Assembly (NCBI RefSeq): GCF_000192795.1
Contig: NW_007360610.1
Span: forward strand, 82,890-146,889
Source: Vavraia culicis subsp. floridensis
Lineage: Eukaryota; Microsporidia; Pleistophoridae
Length of the DNA: 64,000 bases
Direction of reading: 5' to 3'
Position numbers and translations under genes: made by a program. The notes under the pieces are model-generated. The model saw nothing but the letters and a program-made list of their open reading frames with translations, had not been told where the DNA came from and ran no database searches. Positions 36,815 to 55,578 of this stretch are shown here, in pieces. Position 1 is the stretch's first letter; each line of letters starts with the position of its first letter.

Positions 36815-38225
36815 GGTGAAGGGTCAAAATTTTTGATCACGAAAACATTGTGGGACGGTTGCAATGAAGCAGCAACCGTAGGATTGGTGTGGAAACCAGC
36901 ACTCCATTAATTCTCAGTCAGCATGACCAACGCGTACTGCAATTTAGATTATTAGGGCTGAGGAGCGCCACTAGCGAGGTAATAAATCTATTCAATGATT
37001 TTACCGAACTACTCTTATTCACATTGGTGAGTAGCTCTTCAAGGAATGAAGAACGTCATGCAACATTTCATTCATTCGTAGATATGCGTGGTCATTTGAG
37101 AATAAGGCATGATACTGCTGTGCGTGTGCGCACTATCAGTTCTGGACGATCCAGCAGGTAGGCACACATTTCCCTACTTACCCCTAGGGCGTATATTTGA
37201 GATAGTCTCAGTGAAATAACACGCAATCTTGTGTTTGTATAAGACCGATGCAACATTTAAGAAGTAACAGGCCCACATTCGTAGTGGCAGATGCCAAACG
37301 AAGATGTAGACCAAAATGCCAGGCTTGAATTGGTCAGGATCTTGTCCTGAACGAAGATCGGAATCAATAGAACCAGCACTCTCATGGTTCCAATACAGGG
37401 TCGTAACATTAGGCTGTAGGCACCCATGGCTGAGACAGATTTTTAAAATGGATTCTACGGAACGGGCATGCATACAGGCAGTGCTAAAAAAGGCAGTCAT
37501 CAACAAAAGATATACACTATCACTGCAAAAGGCGCGTGCATCCTTTTCTCTATATTTTTATGAAGAACTGTAAAACGTGAACAACCTCTTTGCTCTGAAG
37601 ACACGTTTATTTGCGTGGTAAAGCACCTTTTTTAGCGATTAGTTCCATTCGTATGATCGAGCTATTTAATTAAAGGTGGTTCTCCAAAAAAAATAAAGAA
37701 AACGAACAAACAAACATTTGATGCTTTGCAGGCAGGCATATTCAGCCGCATTGATATGCTTAATCGTTTGTAAAAATTCATCACCTATTTCAGAGTATTT
37801 CTCTGCCGTCTCCCGTTCTATAACACCGAATTCCCAATATATTTTTTAAATGGTACATGATCAGCTGTCAAAAGGTTGAGATAGTTCGTAAATAAGAAAT
37901 AAATGATCGATAATTGCTTGCTCAACACCACGGATCACGATGAAAGCATTGAATGTTAAACATTAGCAGCAGTTCATCCCATGTCCATGCTATAAGGGCT
38001 CGTGAACGAAGTGGTGCATGATTTGCCTTTTTCCAAATCGTTTTGTACGCAAATAATTACGCTGTAGCGATGCAATTAGTAGTTTTGTTAAAATTTGTGA
38101 AGTGAAAGCAACTTTTGTTCCGTTGATAATTGCTATTTAAAGTTTGTCTATTTCCTTTTTGGCGAGAATGCTTGTTATGGAAGTATTTTTAAATTCCGGA
38201 AAAAGAAACCCATTACAGGGTAAAA
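36815..38225. other. Intergenic spacer, left border of the accessory island
   Basis: About 1.4 kb. The part from 36890 to 37510 is less AT-rich and has frames of 85-110 codons on both strands without family similarity; it may be a relic. From 37600 on it is AT-rich. No transposase or RNA was recognised. Confidence 0.4.
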
Positions 38226-39491
38226 ATGCATTTTCATACGCTAGAGATGTTGGTTATGGTGGTGATCTTTGTGCATGCCGATTTGCTGAAGTTGAAAAGT
38301 GTCTGTAAGTGTGCGGAGGAGGGATCGTATCAGTGCCAGAATGTAAACAACCCAAATGTGAAAGGCAATGGCGGCACAACAAGAAAAGCGTGTATCACAG
38401 ATGATCTGTACGCCGGTATTTTTGCAGATGTGGTAGGGAAGGATGGTCTGACTGACAGTCATCCACGAACTGACAATGCCGCTCATAGCCAAATAATGGG
38501 CTGTTCAAGTGCGCCATGTCCTTGTGATGAATTACTTTCTGATGAGATGGTGGAAGATGCCTCAAATTTGATGCGGAAGAGCTACCAGCAAAATGTAGAG
38601 CACAGCTCGTGTCGCATAGCAGCGCGTGGTGATAGCCCAAATAATGAAGAAAAATTGAACGTATCGGACCAACCGGTATGTACCAGGATAGGTGTTGAAA
38701 AAGAGTGTGATCAGGATAATGAGGAAAATAACGATGAGAACGCGTACTGGTTCGGGTCGTACATATCGAGCGCTATACAAAACGGATGCAGAACGGTTTC
38801 ATCTATTGTTGAGGAAGTGTTCAGCATGTTTCAGGGTTGCGGATTGTGGATAGATCCTTCAGATGAACGAAATGAGGAGTTCATCGACGAAGCGATCGAC
38901 AATATGAGCGAATCGGGGAATGGAACTGATAACGAACTTAAGAAGGCGGGAAAATTGTTGGCTAGGACATGCAAGTGCTTTATACGTGAATTTTTCTGGT
39001 GCACCATAGGTTTATGTGACAAAATAAGTGGCGTGATCGGTAAGAGAAAGGTAAAATACAGGGATGCGAACATAGGCTCGGATAAAAACAAAGACAAGTA
39101 TTCAAATTTAGAAAGAACATGCACCTGTGAAGCATACATTAAACGAGCAGCATGCAGGCACGGTTCTGGACTAAAAGGAAAAAAAGGCAAGGCTGTCGAG
39201 CATGTTTCTGATAGCATATATTGTGAGTTTATGAGAGCTTTTGAACAAGAGAAACATGGTTTGACAATGCAAGAGCTCATAGAAAGGGTAGCATCGCGTG
39301 GTGAGCATCGTGGCACTCAAATTGTCGACAGCAAAAAATGTTTTAACGGGTGTGATGAGGTGCAGGATGTTACGAAGAGAAGTAATTTCTACGAAACAGT
39401 GGAATTAGCCATAAAAATGGTTTCTCTAATGGGTGTATTACTGTTTATGGTTGCGCTGGTTGCGACTGTCCTTCACCACTGGACCAAATAA
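38226..39491 (+). CDS. Cys-rich secreted/membrane protein, founder of a local pair
   Basis: The 421-aa protein has a signal-like start (MHFHTLEMLVMVVIFVHADL), many Cys in short clusters (CKCAEEGSYQC, CSSAPCPCDE, CKCFIREFFWC, CTCEAYIKRAAC), an acidic middle, and a C-terminal hydrophobic segment (MVSLMGVLLFMVALVATVL) ahead of a short basic end. This suggests a type I membrane protein. It resembles the product at 50575-51405 in the region EEFIDEAID / ENFIDELIP and in its N-terminal KCA. AGGGTAAAA precedes ATG 38226. No known family; a host-facing or surface role is inferred from secretion and fast evolution. Confidence 0.72.
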   Translation: MHFHTLEMLVMVVIFVHADLLKLKSVCKCAEEGSYQCQNVNNPNVKGNGGTTRKACITDDLYAGIFADVVGKDGLTDSHPRTDNAAHSQIMGCSSAPCPCDELLSDEMVEDASNLMRKSYQQNVEHSSCRIAARGDSPNNEEKLNVSDQPVCTRIGVEKECDQDNEENNDENAYWFGSYISSAIQNGCRTVSSIVEEVFSMFQGCGLWIDPSDERNEEFIDEAIDNMSESGNGTDNELKKAGKLLARTCKCFIREFFWCTIGLCDKISGVIGKRKVKYRDANIGSDKNKDKYSNLERTCTCEAYIKRAACRHGSGLKGKKGKAVEHVSDSIYCEFMRAFEQEKHGLTMQELIERVASRGEHRGTQIVDSKKCFNGCDEVQDVTKRSNFYETVELAIKMVSLMGVLLFMVALVATVLHHWTK

Positions 39492-40733
39492 GTTTGTCAG
39501 TCACGCTGTAAGCGACGTGCATTCATTAAAATATTGTATTTAGTGCTAAGCTCTACGGTGCATGTCTGACATTTACTGCGTTGTTTTTGTAACGGGGATG
39601 TATTTGCCGTACTGGGCTGCAAAACTGCGAATTGCACATTTTCAATGATCGCGTACCGATCAGCACGCTATATTGTAAATTATATCGTAAGATAATTGAT
39701 TAAAAACCGTAATGAACCTGGTAGCAATCATGTGTGCTATTTTAATGGCAAGCAGTTTAATGTTTTACATCTCACCAAGCACAAATGATTCTGCCACATA
39801 AAATAAAAGAGAATGGCGCACCAGAGATCATAAACCCTTTGTTCTCTTTGTTAGCCGGGTTTTAACCGCACAATCCTATGCTACGATTGTTTTAAGAGAA
39901 TTGCTCGGTGAATGTGCGTAGGTATTCGGAGATTCTTCAGCAACATATTACAGAATTATCACAAAATAGTACTGAATTACTTGCTCATTCGTATTTTACT
40001 AAAATGTTCTCCTAATACGATTACATACTAGAACTACGTTCATAAAAACTACTTTTTTACACAGTTTTTGGTACAACTTGGATACAATCTCATATAAAAG
40101 CTCGTATTATCTCAAAGCATATTTGCCATGCTCTTTTCTAGAAGTACAATCCATTCATTATCCACGAATACGTCTTGTACATCAGTGTAAATCATGTCCT
40201 CGTACTCAAGAATCACATTCCTATATTTCAATCGATTTATAGATCACAAATACAAGTATATCTTTTCATTCTTGTTCATCTGCTGCGTTAATTTACATTA
40301 CAGCAGTGAATTATCTTCGTACACTGCAATTGTGTAATCGATATGCGTTCACTCAAGGAATGTGATAAACTGCTCAGCATTATTTCTTTAAATGGTTCAT
40401 AACAGCTTCATGTGACAGATCTGCTGTAAATTAGCTTGTTAAGAACTGATAATGGTTCTGTTATTGATTCGAAGGAACACTGTGCAGTGATTGCTACTCT
40501 TTCCAATTCGTTCGGTGAAACGGGCCAAGTTAAGTGACTGCTAGTGTGAAATGTAAATTAACAAAAGATTGAATTGGACGAGAATTTAAAAACCATTCTG
40601 AGGTATGCGGCAGTATTATGGAATAATGTCCTACAGTGATATTAAACATCAGACTTGGTGAACAAACATTGGAACCAAGCCAAGTAAAATCTGCTTAAGA
40701 TAAAAGAAACATTCGCTAGAACGCGTATTAACT
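39492..40733. other. Intergenic spacer
   Basis: AT-rich, 1.2 kb, with no supportable ORF or repeat. Confidence 0.5.
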
Positions 40734-41192
40734 TTATTGAACGCATGTTTCGTATGCTGGTGGTTTCTCTTCATCACCACTAAATACCGGCAAAGTTATG
40801 TTCTGGCCTGCCATTACTTCAGCGTAAGAAGGTGGCGGATCAGATAATTGTACTGTAAATTGAGGTAAACTATTTCTACTTGCCGGATTAGCTTGATGAC
40901 AGTTAATTATATTCCTAGCTCTACGACGTATTGAAGACACATTCCGTTCACAATATGAATGAATGCCCCTGAATATTCTGTAGATACAGACTATCATCAA
41001 TATAATAAGCAGGAAACCGATAACATTGATAGCTATGGTACCATAAGTGGCTAGAATTTCAGTGCTAGCTAATGGTGTTGTATAATTGAACATGTCTGTG
41101 GAATGATCCATGGTAAAGTTTGAGTCAAAAAAATAACTCACCTCTGTTATTGCTTGGTTTATGCCTAGTGATGAGTTATTATTGCTGTCCAT
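40734..41192 (-). CDS. Single-pass membrane protein with two PPxY motifs
   Basis: The 152-aa protein has an Asn/Ser/Thr-rich N-terminal part with three possible N-glycosylation sites (N6, N25, N36), one membrane helix at about 50-71 (TIAINVIGFLLIILMIVCIY), a basic juxtamembrane stretch (RRRARN) and a tail with PPSY at 120-123 and PPAY at 144-147. The basic flank puts the tail in the cytoplasm. PPxY motifs bind WW domains, classically of Nedd4/Rsp5 ubiquitin ligases. No signal peptide is present, so it would be a signal-anchor protein. No family was recognised. Confidence 0.7.
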   Translation of the reverse strand: MDSNNNSSLGINQAITEVSYFFDSNFTMDHSTDMFNYTTPLASTEILATYGTIAINVIGFLLIILMIVCIYRIFRGIHSYCERNVSSIRRRARNIINCHQANPASRNSLPQFTVQLSDPPPSYAEVMAGQNITLPVFSGDEEKPPAYETCVQ

Positions 41193-42758
41193 TTTTATAG
41201 TGCTCAGTTCTTTTTCACAGCTTTTTTTTATGCTGAACTAATTAAGCACTTTTGTTCAATATTTTCATTTTTTGTGCGCTATAGATGCAACAAATGAAAT
41301 GAATGGATCGTAATTTGGTGTGAATTTGATTCTGTGCAGAATTCATTTGCAGCGCGATTTGTTGCTCTTAATGATGTTTTTGGTATAATTTAATTAAAGT
41401 CGTAATTGAAGTAGAAGTAATTTCATTTAATTACAAGGGCGTTCTCGTAAAAAATTACCAAATTGTAGAGAATACATCAAATAATTTGTATAGTCAAATA
41501 TTATGCACATCAAGACCACAGATTCAAACATAGGTTTGTACAGAAGAACCGGTAACCTCGTTAAATAATGGTAGATATTTTGAGTGCCTCGTTTTTAAAT
41601 TTACAGCATATAAATTATGCTCTTCACATTTCACCAAAAAGTGAATGAAATGTTACAGGTAAAATAGAAAATACACGAGCAATTAGTCTTTTAATGGCAT
41701 GTAATTATCATAATTATGAGTAAATAAGGAAACATAGAGGCTGATTGCTCAGCTCAAAAAATGATAAAATTTCGTTTCGCATTCGTTACACAGAATAAAA
41801 GGTAAAAAATGAATTAAATCACTGTACCATACCAATACCATTTATAACTGCTGAAAAACAGATTATTAAATAAGGCGGTAAATGATAACAATAAATGTAA
41901 ATAAGAGAAAACTTAAAACTTCTATCAATACACAACTGTACCTCAAAAAACGAAACATACAGGACTATAACAATGGAAATGATGGCCGAATAGGATGGTG
42001 GTATAGTAATACTCAAGGAAAGTATAACAGGTTAAATTCTTGTTTTACGTTTCCTTGGTAGATAGGATCAATGAAAGTAACTAATATCATAGAATTGTGT
42101 AATAGGAGAAACCACAAATTGATCCTTTTTGAACGTGTTCAGCTATCATCCATGATTAACCCTAAAATGACATGATTAAAAATGTAGAACTAACTCTTAG
42201 TTCTACGAAAAATACCAGAAGGATGAAGGTGGGGCAGAATCATAACTTAGAAAAATAAGTTTTTGGAAACACTAGAACTTTTGATCCGTTATAATGAGAG
42301 CTGTTACAGCTAGTATTCTAAGAATTACTTCTTTTTTGAGGTAAAAATGAAATAGTCTAAAATAAAAGCAATAATCAAATTAGCACAACATTGATTATTA
42401 AAGACGGCATATTAGTTTAACATATTGAGCAACATCATTAATTAATGATGTATACCAATGAGAAACACAAAAATATATCCATGCCATCCTAAAAATTTAT
42501 CTGCTCATACACGTTTTCCTATTCAGTTAACAAACCATACCAGGATTAGTTCTATTCGATTCCGGTGATATTTCGAATGATTATTTGCGTTTTACTGTGT
42601 GTCTCATTATTTCCCTACTTATCCATTCACACTATGTCATTACCATTTACCCGATTTGTACGTGTTTTAATAAATAAAATATGCATAAATGGTTAATTTT
42701 AATATATCTAATGCAATGATATAGAAAGTATAAATAATTTCGATTCATACAACATAGC
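41193..42758. other. Intergenic spacer, very AT-rich
   Basis: About 1.6 kb. A 65-codon minus-strand hydrophobic frame (41819-42016) was judged weak. No start motif is seen before the next LRR gene. Confidence 0.45.
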
Positions 42759-45677
42759 ATGCAATTTGATATATGTGATTATATTCGGGTGGCAACAAAG
42801 TATTTGCTGCTTTTTAAATCAATGTCGGATACAGCAGAAACTGATTACCTTGTGTATAACAGCTTAAAAGAAACCGAATTAGAGAATTTTCTGATAGGAT
42901 GCGAATCGAGCACCGTTGTCTCTGCGCCTATGCACGAATCATCAGGAGTTCACAGCAGAAACACATGCACTAAGGTCTTTGGTTCCGATGAATACACCGA
43001 TAATAAGCGTAGTGTCAGCTATACGAACGAGATACTAGGTCTGGGAAGAAGGAAATACATAAAATACGTTGATTTTGTGAATGCTAACATCGAAGACATG
43101 TCATTTGTGATTATTAAGGTGCCGCTTACCATGTCGCTTTTTCGAAAGCTTGTTAAACTATCGATGTACAATATCTGCGAATTCACATCAAATGAAATGC
43201 ACGAAATTTTCGCGCATCTCTATCCTTTCCAGGATAAGCAAGGATTGTTAGCATATGTTACATGTTTGCACCTTCAGGAAAATGCTAGTTTGGTTAGGAA
43301 GCTCAAGAAGTGCCACAAAACAGGGGACAAAAGTAATTTCAATGAACAAACACGATTCCTATCAAAATGCATTTTTGACATAATTGATGATTCAGTGTCT
43401 TTTGTCGAAATGGTGAATCAAAATATCGAATTTAGGTTCAGGGGAGAAGGATGTTTTTATGGACAGTTTAATAGGAAAATACACTCTGAAAAAATTATAC
43501 ACCATGAGCTAGAACTGTCGAGTTTGGTGATTGGTTTTCTATTCAATTATCTAGATTTACATTATAACTACTTAGAAGATAACATACACACTTTGGTCAA
43601 TAAGTTTAATGGTAGAGGGACACAATCCCCTTTGGTTCTACGAATAACTTATATCAGCGATAAAATTAATGATGATTGTGAAATAGAGAATACAGACATG
43701 CTTTCTGCAACTGATGTATTGCTAAGAAAGATTAATACAATATCCAATTTTGTTTATCAGATAGAACACAATATTAAGGATGTTATTTTGGAATTTTCTG
43801 AGGTTAACGCATCTGTTGATTCATCCTGGATTCACTTTATCCCAGCTCTAAGGACAATTCAGTGTGATCGTTGTTCCGTAGATTTTATAAGTTCGATACC
43901 GAAGGATATGTTAACAGTAGAAGTCGATTTTTACAATACATCTGATAATGAGATCACAAATGTTTCCCAAGACATTGCGGTAGCACGATATTATGATGGT
44001 ATATTCTACGGCAATTTGGTGTTTGATGGTGCTCAAAGACAGATTGTAATTATTGGAGAGAAAATTCAAGGGTCGTTAACTTTTGCATACAACGAAAAGT
44101 ACGAAGAGATCAAAATATCAAATATAAGTGGAAATGTTTGTTTATCAAACATAGCAGGGATCAACAGAATAGCTTGGAATATGCATGAATACTGTAATGA
44201 ATTGTCGTATGAGAAAAAAGACAATGGAAAAAGTTCGCTCAAGCTTGTAAATGCTCAAATTTGTGATTCGGTTATTCTTGATACGAATATTGGCGTCCTG
44301 TCCTTTAGAAATGTTTATTTTGGCACAAATCAGAAATTCATATTTGTGGATACCAATACATTCATACATATATCAGAATCATACGGTTTGTACGATCTTA
44401 CGCCGTTTTTTGGAATAGAACTGGACATTCAGCAAAGTATGGAATTGATAATCTCACCAATTCAAGACGATGAGATGAAGTTATCCCGGCTCGAATTATC
44501 GGGCGCCAGGCTTCATAGCACTGTAAAGCTGTCGGATATCTTTAAGTATGTTAAATTGAGCAACATTTTCGTTGTGGATGATTCATCATTCATCCTAAAT
44601 GCGCAGTGCAAAGAACTCGTTCTCAATGAGTGTGCCGGTACCATCGATTTTACAGGCATAAAGCAACTCGACATGGTAGAAATTATGTTTTCTCAAGCAG
44701 AATCCATCTATGCCACATTCGCAAATCCGGTCAGTGTTCGTGATTTACGCCTTCATTGTATCAACCAAACCCCAGAAACATTACAGAACTTATTATTCAA
44801 TTTTAAAGACATCGAACGTTTGCAAATAGTGAACAATAGCAGCTCTGCATTCTATACGAGTTGCTTACCTTACAAACAGGATATTGCACAATTCTTCGAA
44901 TATGAGCGTCCTATGAATGCGACTATGCCGTTGTCGATGAATTTACTAGCAGAACACAGCGATTATCCGCACTTAAAAGGTCATGTCATATCAAGCCTGG
45001 TCGTAAATTCTGTTTTGACTTCGTCCATAAGCGAATGCACAGCAAGTACAATCCGCGAGCTTGATCTCACCAACACTATAATTATGAAGGACAACTGGAT
45101 ATCGTTGAGCAAATTGACCAATTTGAAAATACTCAAGTTATGTGTGGATAATCTCACCGATGCGTTCTTCAAGAACCTTCCACCGAGCATCAGGCTATTA
45201 AAATTATCAAGCATGACCACACGTGACGTGGAATGGAACGTTGAAGATAAGTTTGGCTGTTCCAATCCTTTGGTCGCACTCCCAAACTTGCGAATTTTAT
45301 TGGTTGATGCAAATTTCATACCCATTCTATCTCATTCTGATCCAATACCTCGGTCACTCGAGGCCATTCAAGTACGTTTGACAGAGAGATTTGCGAAAGC
45401 CCCATCAATGGCGAGATCGAAATTCAAAATAAGTGAGTTATACATCAGTGATGAAGACGACATTGTCGGTGACTGCAACAAGAGTGTTGGTCGAAAAGTT
45501 AAAGCCCTGCTTATGTTTTTATCAAACTACGTTGATTTTACTGTTCTTGATCATCTCATGCTTGTCTCTTCTTCTGGTTTGATCATAATTGATCCGCTAA
45601 CATACGAAATTTTGAACAAAGATGAAATGTGTGTTCCCATAGGGTTTGGAGAGGATAGAAATTTGATGTGGAGGTGA
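42759..45677 (+). CDS. Large LRR protein of the same family (LRR-B)
   Basis: The 972-aa protein is a paralogue of the 934-aa gene at 8792-11596: matching N-terminal KYLLLFK, the FVIIKVPLTM block, the CLHL and FLSKCIF helix segments, GCFYG, and the C-terminal YVDFTVL. LRR-like units fill the middle and end (LTNLKILKLC, PNLRILLVDANF). No signal peptide is evident, so the protein may act inside the cell or use a non-classical route. Codons are AT-rich. It lies in the accessory island between the PPxY protein and a third LRR gene. Its function is unknown. Confidence 0.85.
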   Translation: MQFDICDYIRVATKYLLLFKSMSDTAETDYLVYNSLKETELENFLIGCESSTVVSAPMHESSGVHSRNTCTKVFGSDEYTDNKRSVSYTNEILGLGRRKYIKYVDFVNANIEDMSFVIIKVPLTMSLFRKLVKLSMYNICEFTSNEMHEIFAHLYPFQDKQGLLAYVTCLHLQENASLVRKLKKCHKTGDKSNFNEQTRFLSKCIFDIIDDSVSFVEMVNQNIEFRFRGEGCFYGQFNRKIHSEKIIHHELELSSLVIGFLFNYLDLHYNYLEDNIHTLVNKFNGRGTQSPLVLRITYISDKINDDCEIENTDMLSATDVLLRKINTISNFVYQIEHNIKDVILEFSEVNASVDSSWIHFIPALRTIQCDRCSVDFISSIPKDMLTVEVDFYNTSDNEITNVSQDIAVARYYDGIFYGNLVFDGAQRQIVIIGEKIQGSLTFAYNEKYEEIKISNISGNVCLSNIAGINRIAWNMHEYCNELSYEKKDNGKSSLKLVNAQICDSVILDTNIGVLSFRNVYFGTNQKFIFVDTNTFIHISESYGLYDLTPFFGIELDIQQSMELIISPIQDDEMKLSRLELSGARLHSTVKLSDIFKYVKLSNIFVVDDSSFILNAQCKELVLNECAGTIDFTGIKQLDMVEIMFSQAESIYATFANPVSVRDLRLHCINQTPETLQNLLFNFKDIERLQIVNNSSSAFYTSCLPYKQDIAQFFEYERPMNATMPLSMNLLAEHSDYPHLKGHVISSLVVNSVLTSSISECTASTIRELDLTNTIIMKDNWISLSKLTNLKILKLCVDNLTDAFFKNLPPSIRLLKLSSMTTRDVEWNVEDKFGCSNPLVALPNLRILLVDANFIPILSHSDPIPRSLEAIQVRLTERFAKAPSMARSKFKISELYISDEDDIVGDCNKSVGRKVKALLMFLSNYVDFTVLDHLMLVSSSGLIIIDPLTYEILNKDEMCVPIGFGEDRNLMWR

Positions 45678-47324
45678 TATCAATAAAAAGGATGTTTGAT
45701 AGTTAAATTTTTGAACTTTCACTTGTCGCATCTGACAAAGAAATAGCTTTCAGGTGTTTCTGGTTCGATCATACGGTGTCCTGAGGTATATATCCCTTAA
45801 TTGGACAATTTATTGCGATACAAGTTATTTTGATCGATTTTCCTGGCTAAAGATAGTTTATTTAACATGGTTTTTGCAACTTAAGCTGTACTAATGTTTT
45901 AACAGGCTACTCTTTCTATTGTGATAGGATGCGAGCGAATATTTTACGCAAGATGACGCACAAATGTTCCCTATGAACTAAATTCTAGCAGCTATGACCG
46001 GGTCCAGCGGACTACAAAAGTGTGAAGATAAATAAACGAGTTTTAGTGGAATAATGAGCTACTATCACTTGTGTTGTTTCCTTGCACCAGCACTGCCATA
46101 ATTGTCCATAGACTTAGGATGTTGCTTTGCATTGTATCGTTTTCTTAGCTTTGTTTAGCTTCAACACCATCTCTCAATATATTGGTACATCTCTTTCTTC
46201 TTTTGCTGATATCATATCAATTTGAGAGAAAGCAGCAGTGCTGTAAAATTGCTACAAAATCACATAAATATTTGCATAATAAATGCCAATAAAATTGATC
46301 ACACTATAATACCTCATTTAATATTTTAATGCTGCTGTCATTTTCAATTTTTTGATTGCCTGTCAAAAAGATGCAATATGGTCATCAAGACCACAGTGAT
46401 TAGTGCTCATTACCAGTCAACCACCATATGTCAATGTGTTTTTATGACAGAATATTTTTAATTAAATACCAGTTTAGTAACAGTTGTGTTATGGCTCTAC
46501 AACACGTGATATCGATTGTGAAATGGCAACAAAATATCATGTCATGATTATCTTGAGAATATTAGCACATTTTTGTAGCTATAATATTGTGCAAAAAGAG
46601 CATAAAGAAGACGAGTACTGATTATTACAACCGGTTTGTTCAGCAACTAGTAAAAAATACTTTCAAACAGTGCTTTAAATAGTTACAATGTTCGAAAAAC
46701 TAATGCAGGTGACATTTTATGCTAACAATAGTTGATCAACATTGATGACATTTATGTTCAATATTTGTTCGAATTGATTTGATGATAAGAAATTCATTTG
46801 GAGTAGAAACGATGACAGGAAAAGAAATGCAGTGATACTAGCATACACAATATAACTGGTGTACATGCATTGTAATAAACATAACTATGATAATGCATTG
46901 ATAATTGCATATTGTATGTAGCTTTCAGCTTTTCGTGAGGTAGATCAACACAATTACAATATGAGCTTTCTGATCAAAAGCAAAACATGTGTTTAACAGC
47001 AATGTATTCATCACTCAACAATACTTTTATTCTTCATCATCATACTCATGCATCTTACTGAAGTGCGTACAATTAGTAACAGTGTGTTAACCAGGAATAC
47101 TTCGTTCACACAAACAACTAGTTTATAATTTTATGTAATAGATTGTTAAGAAAAACAGGCCTATTTTGGTGATCGATGCCATAAACAAGAAAAGAACACA
47201 CTAAACTTGTAAAAATGTGTGCAGCAGTATTGTCAGTGTCAAAAAATTCGCAATTTAATACTAGCATTTTCCTCTAATCACATGACCAACAACCATATGA
47301 GATGAACAAAAAGCACGTGCCGAT
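45678..47324. other. Intergenic spacer between LRR genes
   Basis: AT-rich, 1.6 kb, with no supportable ORF. A short word, CATCAAGACCACAG, near 46385 also occurs near 41511; no longer repeat was found. Confidence 0.45.
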
Positions 47325-49511
47325 ATGAATGAATTTCCTTATCATTTTTGCAAATTTAAAACTATAAAAGGAAAGAATTCTGTGGATCCCATGATTTTTT
47401 TCAGTAACTTGTTGTTCATTCATCAATTGTTATGTACCAATACAGATGATGGAGAGGGTGATGATGGCTCAGAATATGTGTACACAGAGAAAGAACTTAG
47501 GGATGATCTTAAGCACTTACTGGATGAACCTGAAGAACATTTGGATCTCAGGTATGCTCACATTGTGGAATGTCTTCTCTTGTCAGATTGTAAGACACTT
47601 TTGAAGAGGGCAACAATGAAAAAGTACAAGAACTTGCAAACCTTTTATCACGAGCTTCCAAAAGCAATACAATTTGTCTACGAGGCAGAGAAGTTCAGCT
47701 TATACTTTTCTGCTCAACAGACAGATAATGCAGAGCCAATGGGAGGATTGAAGCTTTATATTGACAAGAAGAAGATTGAGATGATGAAAGGTATTTTTAA
47801 AAAACTCGACCGTGTGCATTTGACAATTGTTGTTCGTAAATGGTCAAGAAATTTATCTGATGTGGATCTTAGTGATATAATACAACAATTTTGTTTCATT
47901 ACCGATTTATATATTCTAGACTTGACGCATGAATATACAATTTGGATCGGTGAATCTTGTAAAACAGTGCAAGATTTCATTGATCTTGAAAAATTTTCAA
48001 AATTACGTATACTTAAGGTGAAGTATATGTTTGTAACAGATGAATTCTTAGAGAAAGTGAGTAACATGAAACTGGAAAGTCTGATGTTTATTGGATGTAC
48101 TTTTCTCACTTCCAAGGATACTGTGCAAACTGTGCAACAATGTAAACAAATTGAGGTAGCTTTTGGAGAATCATATGAGACTATCTGCTTCAGTAAGTGC
48201 AAGATGTACGGAATACATCAGTTATGGTTCGCTCTAGGTCTGACATACAGTATAAAGATCATAATCAATCTAAATAACTGCGTAAAACTACGCAATCTGA
48301 CGGTAAACATGGGTGAATATGCGAGTGTTATACTCAGTAAACAAATAGTAAGTGGTCTACGGTATTTATCATTAGGTAAGAATCGTTTTGAACCGCCGCT
48401 TTCGTCTTCTAAGTGTCAGGGTGCTCGACTAGAATTTTTAACAATTGACACAAGAGATCTAGAGCTGGCTGTTAATGTTCTAAAGGAAATTAACCGAAAC
48501 AAACTCAAGAATTTAGTATTGATTTGTCATGTTTGTGATGTTTCCGATTTATTTAACTTAGAATTTGCCGCTCTTGAAATTCTAGAAATTGATGTTAGCA
48601 ATAATAATTTGGAGTTGAAGGATAAAAGCACAATTGAAGTAAAAATGAAAAAGTTAGAAGCACTGAGAATAAATTGCAAGTATGTAAATGAAGCACTCGT
48701 GCAAATGATAACTGAGTTGGAAATGTTGAAACATCTAGAAATTTTTGTAAAAAAATGGAACTATAATTATGAACTTTTATGTAGACAACTAAGCAGTTTA
48801 AAGGGACCAATAGAAAAACTCTTGGTTAGTTCTGAGATGACCATTGGTGGATTGGTAAGGTCGATAGAACCTTTGAACAAGCTGAAAGAATTTTACATAG
48901 ATGGTAGATCCATTCGGTCAACATTTAATAGCCTCGCCAATAGAAATTATGGCAGATTTAAATCCGTGAAAATCCGTTTAAACAGGCTGAAAGAATTATT
49001 CATGAACAGTAGATTCATTCGGCCATTATTTTATAGCCTTGCCAGTCGAAATTATGAAAGACTTCAACCTGCAAAAGCTGACGCAAACGAACAGAATGTG
49101 GTGCATCTTAAACTCCACACTCTTCATATTGGCATGGGTTCAACTTATGAAGAACTAATCGAACTTATGTTATGTCAATATTTTGAAGCTTTCGCAGGTA
49201 TTAAGAAACTGGTGATTGACGTAGTACCAAAATGTCCAGGAGTAATTCAAAAATTGTTTGGAAGTATGCAAGAGGAAGGTATGCAAGAGGAAGGTATGCA
49301 AGAGCAGTTCAATAACTTGATCGAAAGTGTTTTTGAGACTTTCAACCAGCTTGATGTACTTGTGTTCTGTTATAAGAGTTCTCACATATCTAGAGAAGAA
49401 GCGCATATTCTTCGTAAGCTTTTTTCTGAGAAGTGTAAATTGGTCAAGGAGAGATGCGAGTGGTCAGATAATTGCAATGAGGAACGAACAATCTTCGAGC
49501 TTTATAAGTAA
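47325..49511 (+). CDS. Third LRR protein (LRR-C), with internal duplications
   Basis: The 728-aa protein has an N-terminal part with an acidic stretch (DDGEGDDGSE) and a helix-rich region, followed by irregular LRR units (FSKLRILKVKYM, LRYLSLGKNRF, MKKLEALRINC). It is more distant from LRR-A and LRR-B; a possible match is the HIVECLLL helix. A 35-residue duplication occurs: LNKLKEFYIDGRSIR starts at residue 517 and LNRLKELFMNSRFIR at 552. Near the end GMQEE is repeated (49265-49306). There is no signal peptide and no CCC motif. The recent changes point to ongoing diversification. Confidence 0.8.
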   Translation: MNEFPYHFCKFKTIKGKNSVDPMIFFSNLLFIHQLLCTNTDDGEGDDGSEYVYTEKELRDDLKHLLDEPEEHLDLRYAHIVECLLLSDCKTLLKRATMKKYKNLQTFYHELPKAIQFVYEAEKFSLYFSAQQTDNAEPMGGLKLYIDKKKIEMMKGIFKKLDRVHLTIVVRKWSRNLSDVDLSDIIQQFCFITDLYILDLTHEYTIWIGESCKTVQDFIDLEKFSKLRILKVKYMFVTDEFLEKVSNMKLESLMFIGCTFLTSKDTVQTVQQCKQIEVAFGESYETICFSKCKMYGIHQLWFALGLTYSIKIIINLNNCVKLRNLTVNMGEYASVILSKQIVSGLRYLSLGKNRFEPPLSSSKCQGARLEFLTIDTRDLELAVNVLKEINRNKLKNLVLICHVCDVSDLFNLEFAALEILEIDVSNNNLELKDKSTIEVKMKKLEALRINCKYVNEALVQMITELEMLKHLEIFVKKWNYNYELLCRQLSSLKGPIEKLLVSSEMTIGGLVRSIEPLNKLKEFYIDGRSIRSTFNSLANRNYGRFKSVKIRLNRLKELFMNSRFIRPLFYSLASRNYERLQPAKADANEQNVVHLKLHTLHIGMGSTYEELIELMLCQYFEAFAGIKKLVIDVVPKCPGVIQKLFGSMQEEGMQEEGMQEQFNNLIESVFETFNQLDVLVFCYKSSHISREEAHILRKLFSEKCKLVKERCEWSDNCNEERTIFELYK
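48873..49082 (+). repeat. 105-bp diverged tandem duplication within LRR-C
   Basis: The copies 48873-48977 and 48978-49082 encode 35 residues each, with the same order of landmarks (LxxLKE, FIRP/SIRS, SLA.RNY). They keep the reading frame and add one repeat unit. Confidence 0.85.
49265..49306 (+). repeat. 15-bp tandem repeat in LRR-C (about 2.8 copies)
   Basis: ATGCAAGAGGAAGGT is repeated at 49265 and 49280, with a partial third copy at 49295. It encodes MQEEG units and keeps the frame, so length variants are expected. Confidence 0.95.
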
Positions 49512-50574
49512 AAGTTAAGTTATTTTTCGATCTTCTGGTGCTGATCATTTCTTTTTTATGATTGTAATGATCTCAGGTCTCATTGTTCATGGTATTCAAG
49601 CAATCTATAACATATTAATGACATGTAACAGCCGAATGAATGATGCTATCAATCTAAACACAATGGATTGTGTCTCTTGCACATGATCAACGCCATTGCT
49701 GCAGAAAATTTGTTGATATGAACAATTAAGATCTTTGTTGATTAGTAAAACGATTTAAAACCGCTTGTGTTGAGATCACTGCTCTGTCATGTTAACAGTA
49801 ATGAAGTATTTACCAAAAGTAAGAGCTGGTATGATGTTGTGATCTATTCGAACATACTACGGATGACATGTCTTGCAAGAAAGCAATTCTTGCTATGTGT
49901 TGTGAGATAGTCTAGCTATCATACATCGGTAGAAGCGTGACAAGCAGTTTTAGATTTGCTAATTTCATTAATTCACCTCCATTGTTTTAGAAAATTGTTG
50001 CTATTAATCGGGCAACTGATGAGCTGCATTAATAAATGCATGTGGCACATTCATGTTTGTCCATTGCCTGATAGATATTGACAGGAGGAAATGGTCATTC
50101 TGTGAAAAGTATGAGAGAGGAACAATATAGCATCTCTTCTGAGAATAATAATAATAGGTTGAGTATTGAGCACGCTTCTTTGCTGGATGTTAAATTGCCA
50201 CGGATCACATTTATCTGCAGATCTGAGAAGAAAGTCTTTCGATGAGTCGTGCAAACTATGGCTTACATTAGGATCATCATTACGATTGCAGCATATCTTT
50301 ATGTTATAATGAAGGCTTTGTGCGAGATAAAACACTATTTCCTTCATGAACTAAGGGCTACTGACCACGATTGTCTCAGCAAACCAGAAAAGAGTGTTAG
50401 TTATATGAACAGGTAAATAAACGCATTTTTCGTAGAAAACATTTACTAAGGCTGTCCTGAACCAAGAGATCGATCTAAACGTTTTATCGTTCAATTTTTT
50501 CGATTGTTCCTTAATACGAGCTACTACCTGTTACGGAAGTAATACCAAGCACAGAAAAGTAGGACCCGTTTTAG
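49512..50574. other. Intergenic spacer
   Basis: AT-rich, about 1.1 kb. A 98-codon minus frame at 50051-50347 lacks features. GGACCCGTTTTAG leads into the next gene. Confidence 0.5.
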
Positions 50575-51405
50575 ATGCACATGCTTTCATTTGCTGCGCT
50601 AGAAATCGTAGTTTTAATGTTGGTTGTTGCAAATGCTACTGCATTGAGAATTAATAGAGCAAATAAGTGCGCAGTTGATGAGCAGAATAAGAAAGTTGAT
50701 GGCATCGATATGGGGTGCCAAACGAGTATTGCGAACAATCGTATCACAGGTGTTGACAAAGGTACAATGACAGAAGAAGATTTGATGGATGACGTGTTAC
50801 CAAATAGTAGTATGGATGCTGATCGAAGGATGAAATGTTCAAACGGATTGGAACGTGGTGCTGGATTATCTTTGGGTAGAACGACATGCGATAGATCGTT
50901 TTCTGTGCAGCAGAGCCATCAACACGATCTAAAGCATAACCAAGGCATGGTTGCACACCATAATGATTTGGATCGAGATGAAAAATCTGATGTATTTGAA
51001 CATGAGGTGTGCACCGCGTATGATGCCAATGAAAGGGGTGATGAAGTAGTTCATGGTGCAAATGATCATTCTACGTCACGTGCTTCGAATGCCATCCGGT
51101 TGAAAGCAAAAGTTGAAATGTGTCTCGAACGAGTAAAGAATATGATTTTAAACTGTTTTTCGTGCTATATGCAGTGGAAGGAAGCTGATGATATAGAAAC
51201 TGAAAATTTTATTGATGAATTAATCCCCGATGCGGCAGGTTTCGAAGATGCGGTCGATCAAGAATTGGAAGAGCCACAGGAGGGTCTTGGTGAATCGTTT
51301 GTGCGTCTTTTTCATGATTACACCACAGCTTCTTCGAATGATGAGGATGGTGAGTTTATGTTAGATGAGAATAATGAAGGTGATGTGTATGATATGGACG
51401 AATAA
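50575..51405 (+). CDS. Secreted acidic protein, probable paralogue of the 421-aa Cys-rich protein
   Basis: The 276-aa protein has a signal-like start (SFAALEIVVLMLVVANATA), scattered Cys, His/Asp-rich middle parts and a very acidic end (DENNEGDVYDMDE). It shares the ENFIDELIP / EEFIDEAID region and general order with the 421-aa protein, but lacks its C-terminal membrane helix, so it may be soluble. CCC at 50565-50567 supports ATG 50575. After the TAA the same frame continues 31 codons and repeats the GEFM.DEN words, which suggests recent truncation by a stop. Confidence 0.7.
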   Translation: MHMLSFAALEIVVLMLVVANATALRINRANKCAVDEQNKKVDGIDMGCQTSIANNRITGVDKGTMTEEDLMDDVLPNSSMDADRRMKCSNGLERGAGLSLGRTTCDRSFSVQQSHQHDLKHNQGMVAHHNDLDRDEKSDVFEHEVCTAYDANERGDEVVHGANDHSTSRASNAIRLKAKVEMCLERVKNMILNCFSCYMQWKEADDIETENFIDELIPDAAGFEDAVDQELEEPQEGLGESFVRLFHDYTTASSNDEDGEFMLDENNEGDVYDMDE

Positions 51406-51426
51406 GATGTGAACGGTGAGTTTATG
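51349..51426 (+). repeat. Imperfect 66-bp repeat spanning the stop codon
   Basis: GGTGAGTTTATG occurs at 51349-51360 and 51415-51426, followed by similar GATGAGAAT sequences. The TAA at 51403-51405 falls within the first repeat period, and the frame is the same on both sides. Confidence 0.8.
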
Positions 51427-52857
51427 CCCGATGAGAATGATCTAAATCTCCTGGATCATAGACAGAACAATTTTTATGGTCGGCAGATGGCGAGGCTATA
51501 GCGGGTAGCACCCATCAAAAAGGAACGATTGATTGATTTGAGGTGTAACTGAGCTGCTAATTAAATTATTTGATGATTTTGTATAAAATTAAAGGCATAC
51601 ATCGAATGTAACGATGAAATATTACGCCATGATCAAGCATCCACTGATCGTACAGCTCATTTTAATTTAAATTTATGTCGGTGAGTATGGCAGGTAAAAC
51701 CGTAACTATTCTTGTATAGCGGTGTTATACCTGTTAAATGACCGATTAGCAATTTTTTACCGTGTAATTGCTGTTAGTATGTGTGCTGCGTGGAGTAAAT
51801 TAAAGACAAGGAACAAAGGAAATGATAGAGGGAGGTGAAGAAGGACAGCAAACATATTTTAGATGAAAAGGTAGGGAAAGACGATGAGAAGAAAGGTGTG
51901 AACAAAAAACATACTTTTTAAGAAGGTGAAAAATAATAATTTAGGATGATATTGCATAGCGGTAAGAAATAGCACGGAGGTAGAAGAGGTGCAAAAAATA
52001 TGAGAACGGAACAGAAAAGGCAAACAGCGATTAAATGGTATAAAAGGCATACAACAACCACCAATAGTACAAGCATCACAACATCTTACCGAACATCAAT
52101 CAGGGAGTAATATGATGTGCGGGGAGATGATCACAGTGAAATTATTCGTGGATCACTTACAACAAACAAATATTTTCAATCACCGCTAGCAACAAAGTAC
52201 CACGTTATGCTTTTGTGGTAATTTATATTAATTCGTTCACTCAGATACTCTAATCTAACTCAAAACATCTACAAGTACCACATCGCTGTACATCATAATC
52301 CTTCAAACTTTAATTTTACGGTATTTTATCCGTTATTTGCCTCAATTACGTATGATTCATTAAATTTTGTTTCTTTCCTTGCACCGCTCTGCTCATCATT
52401 CCGATATATTAGAACACTGCGATATAATAGCGAATTATTAGATGTGCTGTTCTGTTTCCTTTCATCGCATCGCACTACTCCCATGTTTACGTATCTTCAC
52501 CAACCATTTTTTCTTTGCTATCAGTTACGTGGTAAAACGTCAAAATTAAAAATTTTTATCGTGTGATAGACCACGCTTTAGCGTACCGTAGCATATTTAC
52601 GCACCCGTACCAGTGAGCACATCAAGTATGGTGCACGTGCCAGGTGCACGTGCTGTTCCCTACCCACGCAATACGGCCGGTACCTCTCAGTGCCGTACTG
52701 TCTATCCAAAAATGTGCATGCACAAATAAAATTGCACGCTACCGCGTAGTTCATTGGCCATCGCCGTCAAAAAACAAATAATTGATCTGTTACACGTTCA
52801 CACATCAAAACAAAAAAGAAAAAAATCCCTTTAACCTCACAAACAAAAAAAAACAAA
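51406..52857. other. Intergenic spacer, right border of the accessory island
   Basis: About 1.45 kb. The first 96 bases continue the frame of the acidic protein. Base composition becomes GC-richer from about 52580, and a repeated CACGTG word lies near 52640. No other ORF is supported. Confidence 0.5.
52630..52653. promoter_or_regulatory. Repeated E-box-like palindrome upstream of V-ATPase subunit a
   Basis: GGTGCACGTGC occurs at 52630-52640 and 52643-52653, each holding a CACGTG core, about 205 bases before the V-ATPase start codon. CACGTG is a typical bHLH site in other eukaryotes; use here is inferred. Confidence 0.4.
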
Positions 52858-55578
52858 ATGTTTCTGCAATCAGAGAAAATGAGAAGAATATCGCTGTACA
52901 TCAACAAGGAGAATGTGAAACGGGCGCTTTACGAGCTGGGCAAGCTCAAGCTGATACAGTTCGTTGATCTTAACGCGCACTTGAAGAATGAGCAGCTGCC
53001 GTACAACAAGGAGATCCTGCACTACGAGAAGCTGCGCAGCAAGATAAACTTTCTGATGGGAGAGATTGAGGCGTACGACATGGAGGTGCACAGGAACGAG
53101 CACGTATTTGACGAAGACGCGATAGAGCGGCACTTCAATCGGCTGCTTGAGCTCAAGAGCATACGTGACGGTGCGCAGGAGCAGCTCACCAATCTGAGCG
53201 AGAACCTGTTCATTCTGGAGGAGATGAAGGAGCACGACTTCTCCTCCTCATCGTGCCTCACCGGTATAATTGACAATGACAAGGTGCTGCTGCTCAGGCG
53301 CATCCTCGAGAGCGTGCTCAAGAACAACCTCGTGATACACATGAAAACGGGCAGACGCACCGTGTTCGTGATATTTACGCACGGCGAGGAGGCATTCGAG
53401 AAGATAAAGAAGATCTGCGTGTCGTTCAACGCACGCATCTTCATGATGAAGAGCGAGGAAGAGCAGTCCGAGAAGCAGCCGAAGAACGAGGACAACGAAA
53501 AGAAGGACGAGGAGCAAAAGGAGGAGAACAAGGACAACAACAAGGGGGAGGAACATGAGGACGAGAATCAAACGAACATCCTGCGCGTGACAGCGCTCAT
53601 CCAGCAGTACCAGCACGTGCATGCCAACAATGAGAACAGCATAAAAAACGAGCTCGGAACAATTGCACAGCACATCCACACGTGGAAATACAAGACACGC
53701 CAAGTGCTGCGCATTCTTAAGACGCTCAACCGGTTGAGGGAGAGCACCGCATTTATTGGCGAGGGCTACGTGCCCGAGTCGAAGTTTCCGGTGTTTCAGA
53801 ACGCCGTTAACACAATCTGCGATGCGCACGGGCGTATCGCGTACGAAGAGCAGGTGCGTACGGGCGGTAACCTTGAGGTGAGTGTGCTCGTGACGGGTAA
53901 TAACAAGAAGAGAAGGCAGAAGAGGATGAATGAGCGGGAGATACGAAGGTTGATGAAAGGAGAGGGTAGCAACGGAGAGAATAGGGAAAATAAGATAGAG
54001 GATGAGAGGTACCTTGAAGTGGATGGCACGGGGAGCAGTGGACGGGCCAGGGAGAGGAGTGCTCCTGACATTGAAAGTGATGGGGAGAGGAGCTCAGATG
54101 CACAGTTGGATGGTATGAGCGAGGAGAAGGGTGGAGTGGCGTGTACCACAGATCGCAGCGCAGAGCAGCGAGAGAAGGCCAGGGATGTGAATCAGGCCGA
54201 TGATGCGGAGAGCGATGCGTCCAATTCAAGCGGAGAGAAAACGCACAAAAACGGAGATAAAACACGCCCAAGTGGTGGCAACGTTCAACACCGTACCGAC
54301 CAGTACGAGCAAACCAGGAACAAACGCAGGAGCACAAAAATCGATTCCGATCTCCCACACAAAACTGAAAACTCATCGCTCAGCAACTCGATGGAGGACA
54401 TCCACGCAGCAAGAGCACAAAACGAGGATCACAAAGTGCAAGAAAACGAAATGCCGCCCACGTTCTTCCGCACAAACATTTTCACACGGCCGTTCCAGGA
54501 GATGAACGATGTGTACGGCGTGCCATCGTACCGCGAGATAAATCCGGCACCGTTCACCATCATCACCTTTCCATTTCTGTTCGGTGCCATGTTTGGTGAC
54601 GTGGGGCACGGCCTGATCCTGGTGCTGATAGCGGTGCTGTTCATAAGACGGCCCGAGCTTGCGCGTGTGCACGAGATGGTAGAGATGGTGGTGAATGGCC
54701 GGTATATGCTGCTTGCGTGTGGCGTGATGAGCATGTACTTTGGGCTGCTCTACTCTGAGTTCTTCGGCGTGGTGATGCCGCTGTTCAAGTTTGGAGGTGT
54801 TACGTACTTTGGGGTTGACCCGTCGTGGCACGAGGCGAAGAACGGCATGAACCTGATGAACTCGCTCAAGATGAAGATGAGCGTGGTGATTGGCACGGTG
54901 CACATGGGCCTGGGACTGTGCCTGGCAGCGTTTAACACGGTGCTCACCCGTGACAAGCTGCTGTTCTACTGCAAGGTGCTGCCACGCATTCTCTCGTTTG
55001 CGTGCTTCGCGGGCTACCTGAGCGTGCTCATTGTTGTGAAGTGGATACGTCCGTTCAAGCCGAGCATCATCAACACCATCGTGCTGATGTTCACCGATCC
55101 GTTCAAGGCCGAGTTCTTCTATCCGGGCCAGCTGTACGTGCAGCTGTTCATGCTTGCGCTGTTTGCGGTCTGCATGCCGTGGATGATGGTGTCGTATCCG
55201 ATCATGCTGTTCATCAAGCACAAGCGGAAGAACCTGTCCGATGTCATCATACATTTCGGGATAGAGGCCATTGAGTTCAACATCGGTCTCATCTCCAATA
55301 TCAGCTCGTATTTGCGTATCTGGGCGGTGTCGCTCGCGCATTCCCAGCTCACCGGCATTATACACAAGTATACGATGGGGAGTGCGAACGTGATTGTAAG
55401 GATTGTGAGCGCACCTGTGTGGCTGCTTGCAACGATGGTGCTTATGGTAGCGCTTGAGGGGCTGAGCAGCTCGTTGCATGCCATGCGGCTCAATTGGATT
55501 GAATTTAATTCGAAGTTTTACGATGGACAGGGCAATCCGTTCCAGCCCCTTAACTTCGATGAGGACAGCGATGTGTAA
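52858..55578 (+). CDS. VPH1: V-type proton ATPase subunit a (Vph1/Stv1 family)
   Basis: The 906-aa protein has an N-terminal cytosolic half, then membrane helices from about residue 565 (FTIITFPFLFGAMFGDVGHG). SSYLRIWAVSLAHSQL holds the essential proton-path Arg, here R820, equivalent to yeast R735. The subunit forms the half-channels next to the c-ring. Two charged inserts are unusual: about residues 198-236 (Glu/Lys/Asn repeats) and about 345-530. Together they make the N-half larger and low-complexity. A poly-A rich leader precedes ATG 52858. Codons are strongly GC-ended, giving long antisense shadow frames. Confidence 0.95.
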   Translation: MFLQSEKMRRISLYINKENVKRALYELGKLKLIQFVDLNAHLKNEQLPYNKEILHYEKLRSKINFLMGEIEAYDMEVHRNEHVFDEDAIERHFNRLLELKSIRDGAQEQLTNLSENLFILEEMKEHDFSSSSCLTGIIDNDKVLLLRRILESVLKNNLVIHMKTGRRTVFVIFTHGEEAFEKIKKICVSFNARIFMMKSEEEQSEKQPKNEDNEKKDEEQKEENKDNNKGEEHEDENQTNILRVTALIQQYQHVHANNENSIKNELGTIAQHIHTWKYKTRQVLRILKTLNRLRESTAFIGEGYVPESKFPVFQNAVNTICDAHGRIAYEEQVRTGGNLEVSVLVTGNNKKRRQKRMNEREIRRLMKGEGSNGENRENKIEDERYLEVDGTGSSGRARERSAPDIESDGERSSDAQLDGMSEEKGGVACTTDRSAEQREKARDVNQADDAESDASNSSGEKTHKNGDKTRPSGGNVQHRTDQYEQTRNKRRSTKIDSDLPHKTENSSLSNSMEDIHAARAQNEDHKVQENEMPPTFFRTNIFTRPFQEMNDVYGVPSYREINPAPFTIITFPFLFGAMFGDVGHGLILVLIAVLFIRRPELARVHEMVEMVVNGRYMLLACGVMSMYFGLLYSEFFGVVMPLFKFGGVTYFGVDPSWHEAKNGMNLMNSLKMKMSVVIGTVHMGLGLCLAAFNTVLTRDKLLFYCKVLPRILSFACFAGYLSVLIVVKWIRPFKPSIINTIVLMFTDPFKAEFFYPGQLYVQLFMLALFAVCMPWMMVSYPIMLFIKHKRKNLSDVIIHFGIEAIEFNIGLISNISSYLRIWAVSLAHSQLTGIIHKYTMGSANVIVRIVSAPVWLLATMVLMVALEGLSSSLHAMRLNWIEFNSKFYDGQGNPFQPLNFDEDSDV

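What the first reader, a model, noticed from the sequence alone, without database searches (positions are those of the whole stretch)
38226..51405. Accessory island of secreted, PPxY and LRR genes between core genes
Five neighbouring genes without recognised cellular families (421-aa Cys-rich, 152-aa PPxY, LRR-B, LRR-C, 276-aa secreted) lie between alanyl-tRNA synthetase and V-ATPase subunit a. They share AT-rich codons, long spacers and mostly weak or absent CCC motifs. Such a grouping suggests a fast-evolving region linked to host interaction.
Basis: partly seen in the sequence, partly recalled or inferred. Interest (0 to 1): 0.75.

Follow-up and report, generated by a model that had tools for sequence, protein, structure and literature searches.

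The report
Secreted LRR gene cassette in microsporidian
In a mosquito-infecting microsporidian, what looked like one island of host-interaction genes is a mix of unrelated genes, one of which is a copy of a dispersed gene cassette whose surroundings stay fairly constant while its protein-coding part changes faster.

Summary
The window is from the mosquito microsporidian Vavraia culicis. All five ORFs exist; none passes a Pfam cut-off. They are not one island. The 421-aa and 276-aa genes are diverged paralogues, probably secreted. The PPxY gene is single copy. LRR-B belongs to an old dispersed LRR family (13 long loci, LRR-A included). LRR-C is the striking part: it sits in a dispersed unit (45912-50403) that fills the gap between LRR-B and the 276-aa gene. 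18 genomic places match its protein, and each also matches at least one of its spacers. Its start should move to 47391, giving a signal-peptide-like N-terminus just after TATAAAAGG and CCC. In 7 copies the two flanks differ by 7-13%, the coding sequence by 15-28% (21 of 21 pairs); fourfold sites also exceed flanks (10 of 10 pairs); coding sequences are mosaics (0 of 500 permutations). One pair outside that set (C26-C10) shows no coding excess, which I read as recent exchange of coding sequence. Most likely LRR-C is a secreted LRR protein diversified by ectopic gene conversion under weak or diversifying constraint. Secretion, expression and host role are inferred; dN/dS is not above 1 overall; synteny in other microsporidia could not be tested.

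The parts
38226..39491 (+). 421-aa Cys-rich gene: hydrophobic N-terminus like a signal peptide, C-terminal hydrophobic stretch (residues 398-416), 22 Cys
   Evidence: only paralogue found in the genome is the 276-aa gene; relatives 97% and 70%
40734..41192 (-). 152-aa single-copy protein, one TM by hydropathy (residues 52-70), two PPxY motifs after it (PPSY 40824-40835, PPAY 40752-40763)
42759..45677 (+). LRR-B: 972-aa member of a dispersed LRR family, no signal peptide apparent
   Evidence: searches (27 matches; 11 of 13 long loci open; relatives 83% and 97%), weak LRR evidence
45912..50403 (+). LRR-C unit: dispersed repeat of about 4.5 kb
46085..47390 (+). conserved 5' flank of the cassette, no long ORF
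   Evidence: JC distance 0.077-0.132 among 7 copies; ORFs at most 63 aa
47363..47371 (+). TATAAAAGG, 28 to 20 bases before the corrected LRR-C start
47391..49511 (+). LRR-C coding sequence with corrected start (706 aa; signal-peptide-like MIFFSNLLFIHQLLC)
   Evidence: LRR fold
48872..49076 (+). internal direct repeat in LRR-C (spacing 105, 76% identity); the extra segment is in 4 of 11 aligned rows
49512..50230 (+). conserved 3' flank of the cassette, no long ORF
   Evidence: JC distance 0.071-0.133 among 7 copies
50575..51405 (+). 276-aa gene, shorter paralogue of the 421-aa gene, hydrophobic N-terminus like a signal peptide
   Evidence: BLASTP 3e-10, 60 of 264 columns identical; mutual only other hits in the genome

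Best explanation
The stretch is a composite, not an island with one history. Shown: LRR-C is one of at least 18 genomic places of a dispersed cassette, with a conserved promoter and flanks around a faster-diverging, mosaic coding sequence for an LRR solenoid that starts with a signal-peptide-like segment. Inferred: ectopic gene conversion keeps the flanks alike and also shuffles pieces of the coding sequences, while weak or diversifying constraint on the LRR core keeps many coding variants. The protein is exported and binds host or surface partners, so the family serves as a repertoire of variable secreted binders. The 421/276-aa pair is a separate pair of diverged, probably secreted paralogues. 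The PPxY protein is possibly a membrane adaptor for a HECT ligase of the parasite rather than part of the cassette.
For: 18 contig places match LRR-C, and each of the 18 also matches at least one of the two spacers. The 10 other database relatives listed are all V. culicis proteins. Coding JC 0.150-0.276 against 0.077-0.132 (5') and 0.071-0.133 (3') in 21 of 21 pairs of 7 copies. Fourfold sites 0.130-0.231 against flanks 0.076-0.096 in 10 of 10 pairs of 5 copies, Fisher p 0.038 to 2e-7. A divergent copy on C36 differs from LRR-C by 27-38% in 5 coding windows but by 6-13% in 3 windows of 5' flank. PHI-type test (own script) on 6 intact copies: observed 0.316, permuted 0.413 (SD 0.005), 0 of 500 at or below. 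Codon positions differ almost equally (0.204, 0.170, 0.202). Omega 0.59-0.78 for 678 codons and 0.86-1.08 for a middle stretch of 162 codons, by model. 7 of 17 loci carry a full open frame from the conserved start. LRR fold.
Against: The pair C26-C10, outside the 7 copies because C10 lacks most of its 5' flank, shows no coding excess: 4 of 7 coding windows (0.023-0.073) lie below all four inner flank windows (0.077-0.112); the outermost 3' window differs by 0.255. In the divergent subfamily the rise in divergence begins about 180 bases upstream of the ATG, not at it. Pairwise dN/dS is 0.45-0.71, so selection above neutral is not shown. A control duplicate (LRR-A against its copy on C43) also has more coding than flank divergence (0.091 against 0.057 and 0.076). 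The other 10 of 17 loci are broken, cut by contig ends or partly masked, so decay explains part of it. Two of the 7 compared copies (C22, C27) are themselves broken. PMC4435813 reports no enrichment of secreted unknown proteins in V. culicis intracellular stages. No expression or protein data for these genes were seen. The LRR-C model has mean pLDDT 56.
Confidence: 0.6

Rival explanations
1. The flanks are under purifying selection (promoter, terminator or noncoding RNA), and the LRR-C coding sequences are simply drifting in a family that is decaying.
For: 10 of 17 loci are not intact as held; codon positions diverge almost equally; the 60 bases before the ATG have no difference in the pairs W-C26 and W-C16.
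Against: 7 full open frames persist; constraint would have to cover about 2 kb outside the gene; no Rfam match reached its gathering score there; omega for the rest of the gene outside the middle stretch is 0.51-0.69, so some constraint remains.
Confidence: 0.22
2. The LRR-C unit is a transposable element, a relic of one, or a passenger of one.
For: Dispersed unit with similar direct repeats at both ends (alignments of 141-270 bases); 5' ends differ between copies.
Against: The two end repeats of the C16 copy are only 68% alike, while the 5' ends of C16 and C22 are 96% alike, which does not fit LTRs made at each insertion; 3' ends of copies vary more (65-86%), so this argument is weaker there. 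No shared inverted termini or target duplications were seen by eye in the aligned ends. No ORF of 65 aa or more in the flank stretches examined, which does not exclude a non-autonomous element.
Confidence: 0.12
3. One reading: one accessory island of functionally linked host-interaction genes.
For: Low GC3; three genes with signal-peptide-like N-termini; for the 421-aa gene only relatives at 97% and 70% were found.
Against: Different copy-number histories; ordinary spacers; a run of 5 is not unusual (P 0.15); similar genes occur elsewhere in the window (LRR-A, 244-aa gene).
Confidence: 0.08

Closest known systems
Spraguea lophii LRR family (PMC3749934, abstract and passages read)
   Same: Lineage-specific microsporidian LRR expansion; 37 of 52 complete proteins have a signal peptide and no TM and are called possible effectors
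   Different: No S. lophii protein among the hits; conserved flanks around a variable coding part are not mentioned in the passages read
Trachipleistophora hominis LRR family of 117 ORFs (PMC3486916, passages read)
   Same: Large LRR family in the closest sequenced relative (PMC4654818, passage), with fragments and apparent pseudogenes, as LRR-B and LRR-C show
   Different: PMC3749934 says no secretion signals were reported for it; no T. hominis protein among the hits, whose reach is small
Signal-peptide-enriched LRR family across microsporidia (PMC3879972, passages read)
   Same: That study includes V. culicis and reports LRR proteins with more signal peptides than fungal homologues
   Different: Its tables were not seen, so whether LRR-C is in that family is unknown; homologues there include fungal outgroups
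Encephalitozoon cuniculi EXT repeats with inter gene families (PMC4704409, passages read)
   Same: Gene families carried in repeated DNA units with mosaic recombination and pseudogenes
   Different: Those lie mostly in subtelomeres; here 11 of 18 places are more than 1 kb from a contig end
Accelerated evolution of snake venom proteins (group IIA PLA2; passages of PMC7150969 read; slower noncoding parts recalled)
   Same: Coding part diverges faster than noncoding parts of the same units
   Different: dN/dS is not above 1 over the whole gene here
Antigenic variation families such as var and VSG (recalled)
   Same: Multi-copy, conserved flanks, mosaic coding sequences, broken copies
   Different: No evidence of switching or exclusive expression

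Membership tests
Leucine-rich repeat proteins (LRR-C) | LRR solenoid fold | tested here: met
Leucine-rich repeat proteins (LRR-C) | Pfam LRR profile above its cut-off | tested here: not met
   No match for LRR-C; for relative P0005 LRR_14 at 13.6 bits against 40.
Leucine-rich repeat proteins (LRR-B) | LRR solenoid | tested here: inconclusive
   Family profile weakly matches 4ezg (E 0.0015) and internalin K (E 0.0076); Foldseek TLR8 E 3.6e-5, but TM 0.16-0.19 and mean pLDDT 53.
T. hominis 117-member LRR family | sequence homology | tested here: inconclusive
   No T. hominis protein among the hits; one search did not list the genome's own LRR-B paralogues either, so its reach is small.
S. lophii secreted LRR family | signal peptide, no TM | tested here: inconclusive
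   LRR-C from 47391: best N-terminal 11 residues mean hydropathy 1.76, no 19-residue TM; no signal-peptide predictor was available.
S. lophii secreted LRR family | sequence homology | tested here: inconclusive
   All 10 named relatives are V. culicis; only the 7998 candidates sharing most words were scored.
Transposable element (autonomous) | own transposase or reverse transcriptase | tested here: not met
   No ATG-started ORF of 65 aa or more in 46085-47390 and 49512-50230 or the same stretches of the other aligned copies. A non-autonomous element is not excluded.
Transposable element (autonomous) | common termini and target duplications | tested here: inconclusive
   Not seen by eye in aligned ends of 11 copies (3') and 7 copies (5').
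Antigenic variation cassette family | mosaic recombination among copies | tested here: met
   0 of 500 permutations on 6 intact copies; nearest neighbour changes along the gene.
Antigenic variation cassette family | switching or exclusive expression | not testable with these tools
   No expression data held.
Accelerated evolution type (venom) | dN/dS above 1 | tested here: not met
   0.45-0.71 in 21 pairs; 0.59-0.78 over 678 codons, 0.86-1.08 in 162 middle codons.
NEDD4/Rsp5 PY adaptor (PPxY protein) | TM segment plus tandem PPxY | tested here: met
   Sequence and hydropathy; that the tail faces the cytosol is inferred from the basic residues after the TM.
NEDD4/Rsp5 PY adaptor (PPxY protein) | WW-HECT ligase in the same genome | tested here: inconclusive
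   One WW above cut-off, in a protein I take to be Prp40-like. HECT protein L056 has no Pfam WW match; a 171-residue piece aligns with WWP1 at E 1.3e-5 over two WW-like stretches whose own E-values are only 1.1 and 0.13, and the whole protein's best PDB match is HUWE1.
NEDD4/Rsp5 PY adaptor (PPxY protein) | binding to a WW domain | not testable with these tools
   Needs a binding experiment.

The most novel reading that the evidence does not exclude
LRR-C is a cassette archive in a microsporidian: whole coding sequences, or large pieces of them, are exchanged between constant promoter-and-flank cassettes, giving a reservoir of secreted LRR variants comparable in logic to var or VSG genes. Because the step in divergence lies near the ATG and the stop in the main group of copies, exchange templated by transcripts (which have very short UTRs in microsporidia; recalled) is not excluded.
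Probability: 0.2. Interest if true: 0.8.

Novelty: new variant of a known kind. Interest (0 to 1): 0.5.

Why it matters
Expanded LRR families are known from microsporidia, but their function and way of diversifying are not. A secreted LRR family with conserved promoters and flanks and mosaic coding sequences would give a concrete, testable route to protein variation in organisms thought to be highly reduced. It would also move a gene start so that a likely signal peptide comes into view.

Tried and rejected
Rejected or set aside: LTR retroelement made by recent insertions (C16 end repeats 68% alike, 5' ends of C16 and C22 96% alike; the 3' ends of copies vary at 65-86%, so the argument is weaker there); long spacers as a mark of an island; further repeats in the rest of the stretch (36815-38225 and 39492-42758 match only themselves); tRNA genes in the window and RNA families in 36815-52857 (one match, IsrM, 17.4 bits against a gathering score of 376, taken as chance); a conserved gene in the flanks (a 49-63 codon antisense frame recurs in 7 of 8 copies with a full 5' flank and was not followed). 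PPxY acting only on a host ligase is not required, since the parasite has two HECT genes, but WW domains in them are doubtful.

No expression data could be read.

Literature: among the papers listed I saw none whose title or abstract start names this V. culicis family or a PPxY protein of this kind; one search listed a Vps25 paper that holds both words. One search found no paper; of 32 papers, 10 were listed and none bore on this; one search gave PMC7150969. Supplementary tables were not available.

The seven-copy comparison (C7, C16, C22, C30, C26, C44, C27) leaves out 11 of 18 places: C10, C55, C51, C46 (flank cut by a contig end), C36, C24, C15 (divergent, broken or partly masked), C9, C11, C33 and C59. 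C22 and C27 have broken frames, and the held 3' flank of C44 is cut at 603 bases.
Full report
Origin. The window is contig C7:82890-146889 of a genome of 5.6 Mb in 80 contigs. LRR-C relatives carry VCUG names of Vavraia culicis subsp. floridensis, a mosquito parasite whose genome is described in PMC4435813 (passages read). That paper reports 169 secreted V. culicis proteins that are expressed during infection and have no predicted domain. It also reports that V. culicis intracellular stages were not enriched for such proteins. The word leucine does not occur in its main text.

The five genes. All ORFs are present and none passes a Pfam cut-off. Copy number differs sharply. The 421-aa gene finds only itself and the 276-aa gene in the genome, and the reverse holds. 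A direct comparison gives BLASTP E 3e-10, colinear from the N-terminus, 60 of 264 columns identical. They are diverged paralogues about 11 kb apart on the same strand. The 421-aa protein has a C-terminal hydrophobic stretch that the 276-aa protein lacks. The 421-aa gene has two database relatives, 97% and 70% identical, both in source 'lgn', which I take to be Logan assemblies (recalled). The PPxY gene is single copy. The DNA from 36815 to 38225 and from 39492 to 42758 matches nothing else in the genome.

LRR-B. It has 27 matches in the genome. Of 13 long loci, 11 have an open frame over about the full length, LRR-A of this window among them, and 2 are broken. Identity to 10 paralogues is 18-37%. 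Among 15 loci compared as DNA, only LRR-A and a broken near-copy on C43 share a long stretch; the other matches are of 53, 131 and 371 bases. Database relatives are one at 83% over the full length and one at 97% over 70%, both from 'lgn'. That search did not list the genome's own paralogues, so its reach is small. No signal peptide is apparent.

LRR-C as a cassette. The protein matches 18 contig places. DNA similarity goes far beyond the ORF: the window copy is alike to others from 45912 to about 50403, between the end of LRR-B (45677) and the start of the 276-aa gene (50575). Searches with the 5' and 3' spacers gave 15 and 17 matches, the window itself included. Each of the 18 places has a match to at least one spacer, and one further 5' match lies at the end of contig C21 without the gene. 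Copies on C16 and C22 share 0.36 kb more upstream, and those on C30 and C10 share a further 1.1 kb downstream. Similar direct repeats (alignments of 141-270 bases, 60-70% identical) lie at the two ends. I saw no crisp termini.

Corrected start. Ten copies were aligned at the start. The listed upstream ATG is missing in 7 of 10. TATAAAAGG lies 28 to 20 bases before the inner ATG at 47391 in the window copy, and the box is present in 10 of 10; CCC stands directly before the inner ATG in 7 of 10. Two copies (C27, C44) have an in-frame ATG six codons further up. The new N-terminus, MIFFSNLLFIHQLLC, is signal-peptide-like. Seven of 17 loci carry a full open frame from it.

Flanks against coding sequence. 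In 7 copies, JC distances are 0.077-0.132 (5' flank), 0.150-0.276 (coding) and 0.071-0.133 (3' flank). Coding exceeds both flanks in 21 of 21 pairs, and the profile rises after the ATG and falls around the stop. In 5 of the intact copies fourfold sites differ at 0.130-0.231 and flanks at 0.076-0.096, in 10 of 10 pairs (ratio 1.7-2.9, Fisher p 0.038 to 2e-7). The pairs are not independent. The C36 copy has coding windows 27-38% different from LRR-C while its 5' flank windows differ by 6-13%; here the rise begins about 180 bases before the ATG. Against this, C26 and C10 show no coding excess (4 of 7 coding windows lie below all four inner flank windows), and C26 and C55 are nearly identical at the 3' end of the coding part with flanks about 6% apart. 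I read these as recent conversions inside the coding part.

Selection and recombination. Pairwise dN/dS is 0.45-0.71 in 21 pairs of 7 intact copies. Codon-model omega, with 9 copies of which 3 are partial, is 0.59-0.78 for 678 codons, 0.86-1.08 for 162 middle codons and 0.51-0.69 for the other 516, by model. Codon positions diverge almost equally in 5 copies. In the control pair LRR-A and C43 (broken), coding differs by 0.091 (254 of 2805), with flanks at 0.057 (23 of 406) upstream and 0.076 (9 of 119) downstream, so a milder excess exists there too. A PHI-type test on 6 copies gave 0 of 500 permutations at or below the observed value, and nearest neighbours change along the gene. An internal direct repeat (48872-49076) adds a segment seen in 4 of 11 aligned rows.

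PPxY gene. It has one TM by hydropathy, a basic stretch after it, and PPSY and PPAY in the tail, so the tail probably faces the parasite cytosol (inference). The only WW domain found above cut-off is in a protein I take to be Prp40-like. There are two HECT genes. One has a sub-threshold AZUL match, hence perhaps E6AP-like. The other, L056, has HUWE1 as best PDB match; a piece of it aligns with WWP1 (E 1.3e-5) through two WW-like stretches that are not significant one by one, and Pfam finds no WW there. A role as adaptor for that ligase is one plain reading; binding is untested.

Interpretation. The low GC3 and the lack of domains are real, but the run of five is not unusual in this window (P 0.15) and the genes do not share a history. 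The stretch is best described as a place where an LRR-C cassette lies between LRR-B and one of two diverged, probably secreted paralogues. Ectopic conversion with weak or diversifying constraint on a secreted LRR protein accounts for the conserved flanks, the mosaic coding part and the broken copies. The cassette structure and mosaicism are shown; secretion, expression and host binding are inferred.

Known kinds. LRR expansions are published for T. hominis (PMC3486916) and S. lophii (PMC3749934), a signal-peptide-enriched LRR family across microsporidia, with V. culicis in the data set, in PMC3879972, and repeat units with mosaic gene families for E. cuniculi (PMC4704409); abstracts or passages only were read. 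I found no description of this cassette in the listings or in those passages; supplementary tables were not seen. I class it as a new variant of a known kind.

Noticed in passing
window 8792-11596 (-): LRR-A is an LRR-B family member with a near-copy on contig C43 (L018, 91% DNA identity over 3037 columns) whose frame is broken.
   Followed up: partly
window 13352-14086 (-): 244-aa Ala-rich protein with a C-terminal hydrophobic stretch; a hydrophobic stretch after Met26 suggests an internal start with a signal peptide, so a possible surface protein.
   Followed up: no
window 51340-51441 (+): A 36-base direct repeat (81% identity) stands on either side of the stop of the 276-aa gene, in the same frame, so the tail repeat goes on past the stop.
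   Followed up: partly
window 2716-6189 (+): 1157-aa protein with SMP and C2 domains (tricalbin-like).
   Followed up: no
window 52858-55578 (+): The V-ATPase subunit a gene carries long charged low-complexity inserts (by reading).
   Followed up: no
L056 298-2280 (+): HECT protein with two weak WW-like stretches; best PDB match HUWE1, a possible reduced NEDD4-type ligase.
   Followed up: partly
L033, L035, L037, L038, L042, L045 and contig C33: 7 of 18 LRR-C places lie within 1 kb of a contig end; assembly breakage or subtelomeric position cannot be told apart.
   Followed up: no
L060 and L062 (C30 and C10): C30 and C10 share about 1.1 kb of further downstream DNA beyond the common 3' end of the LRR-C unit.
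   Followed up: no
window 46085-47390 (-): A 49-63 codon antisense frame recurs in 7 of 8 LRR-C copies with a full 5' flank; at this level of divergence it may be chance.
   Followed up: no
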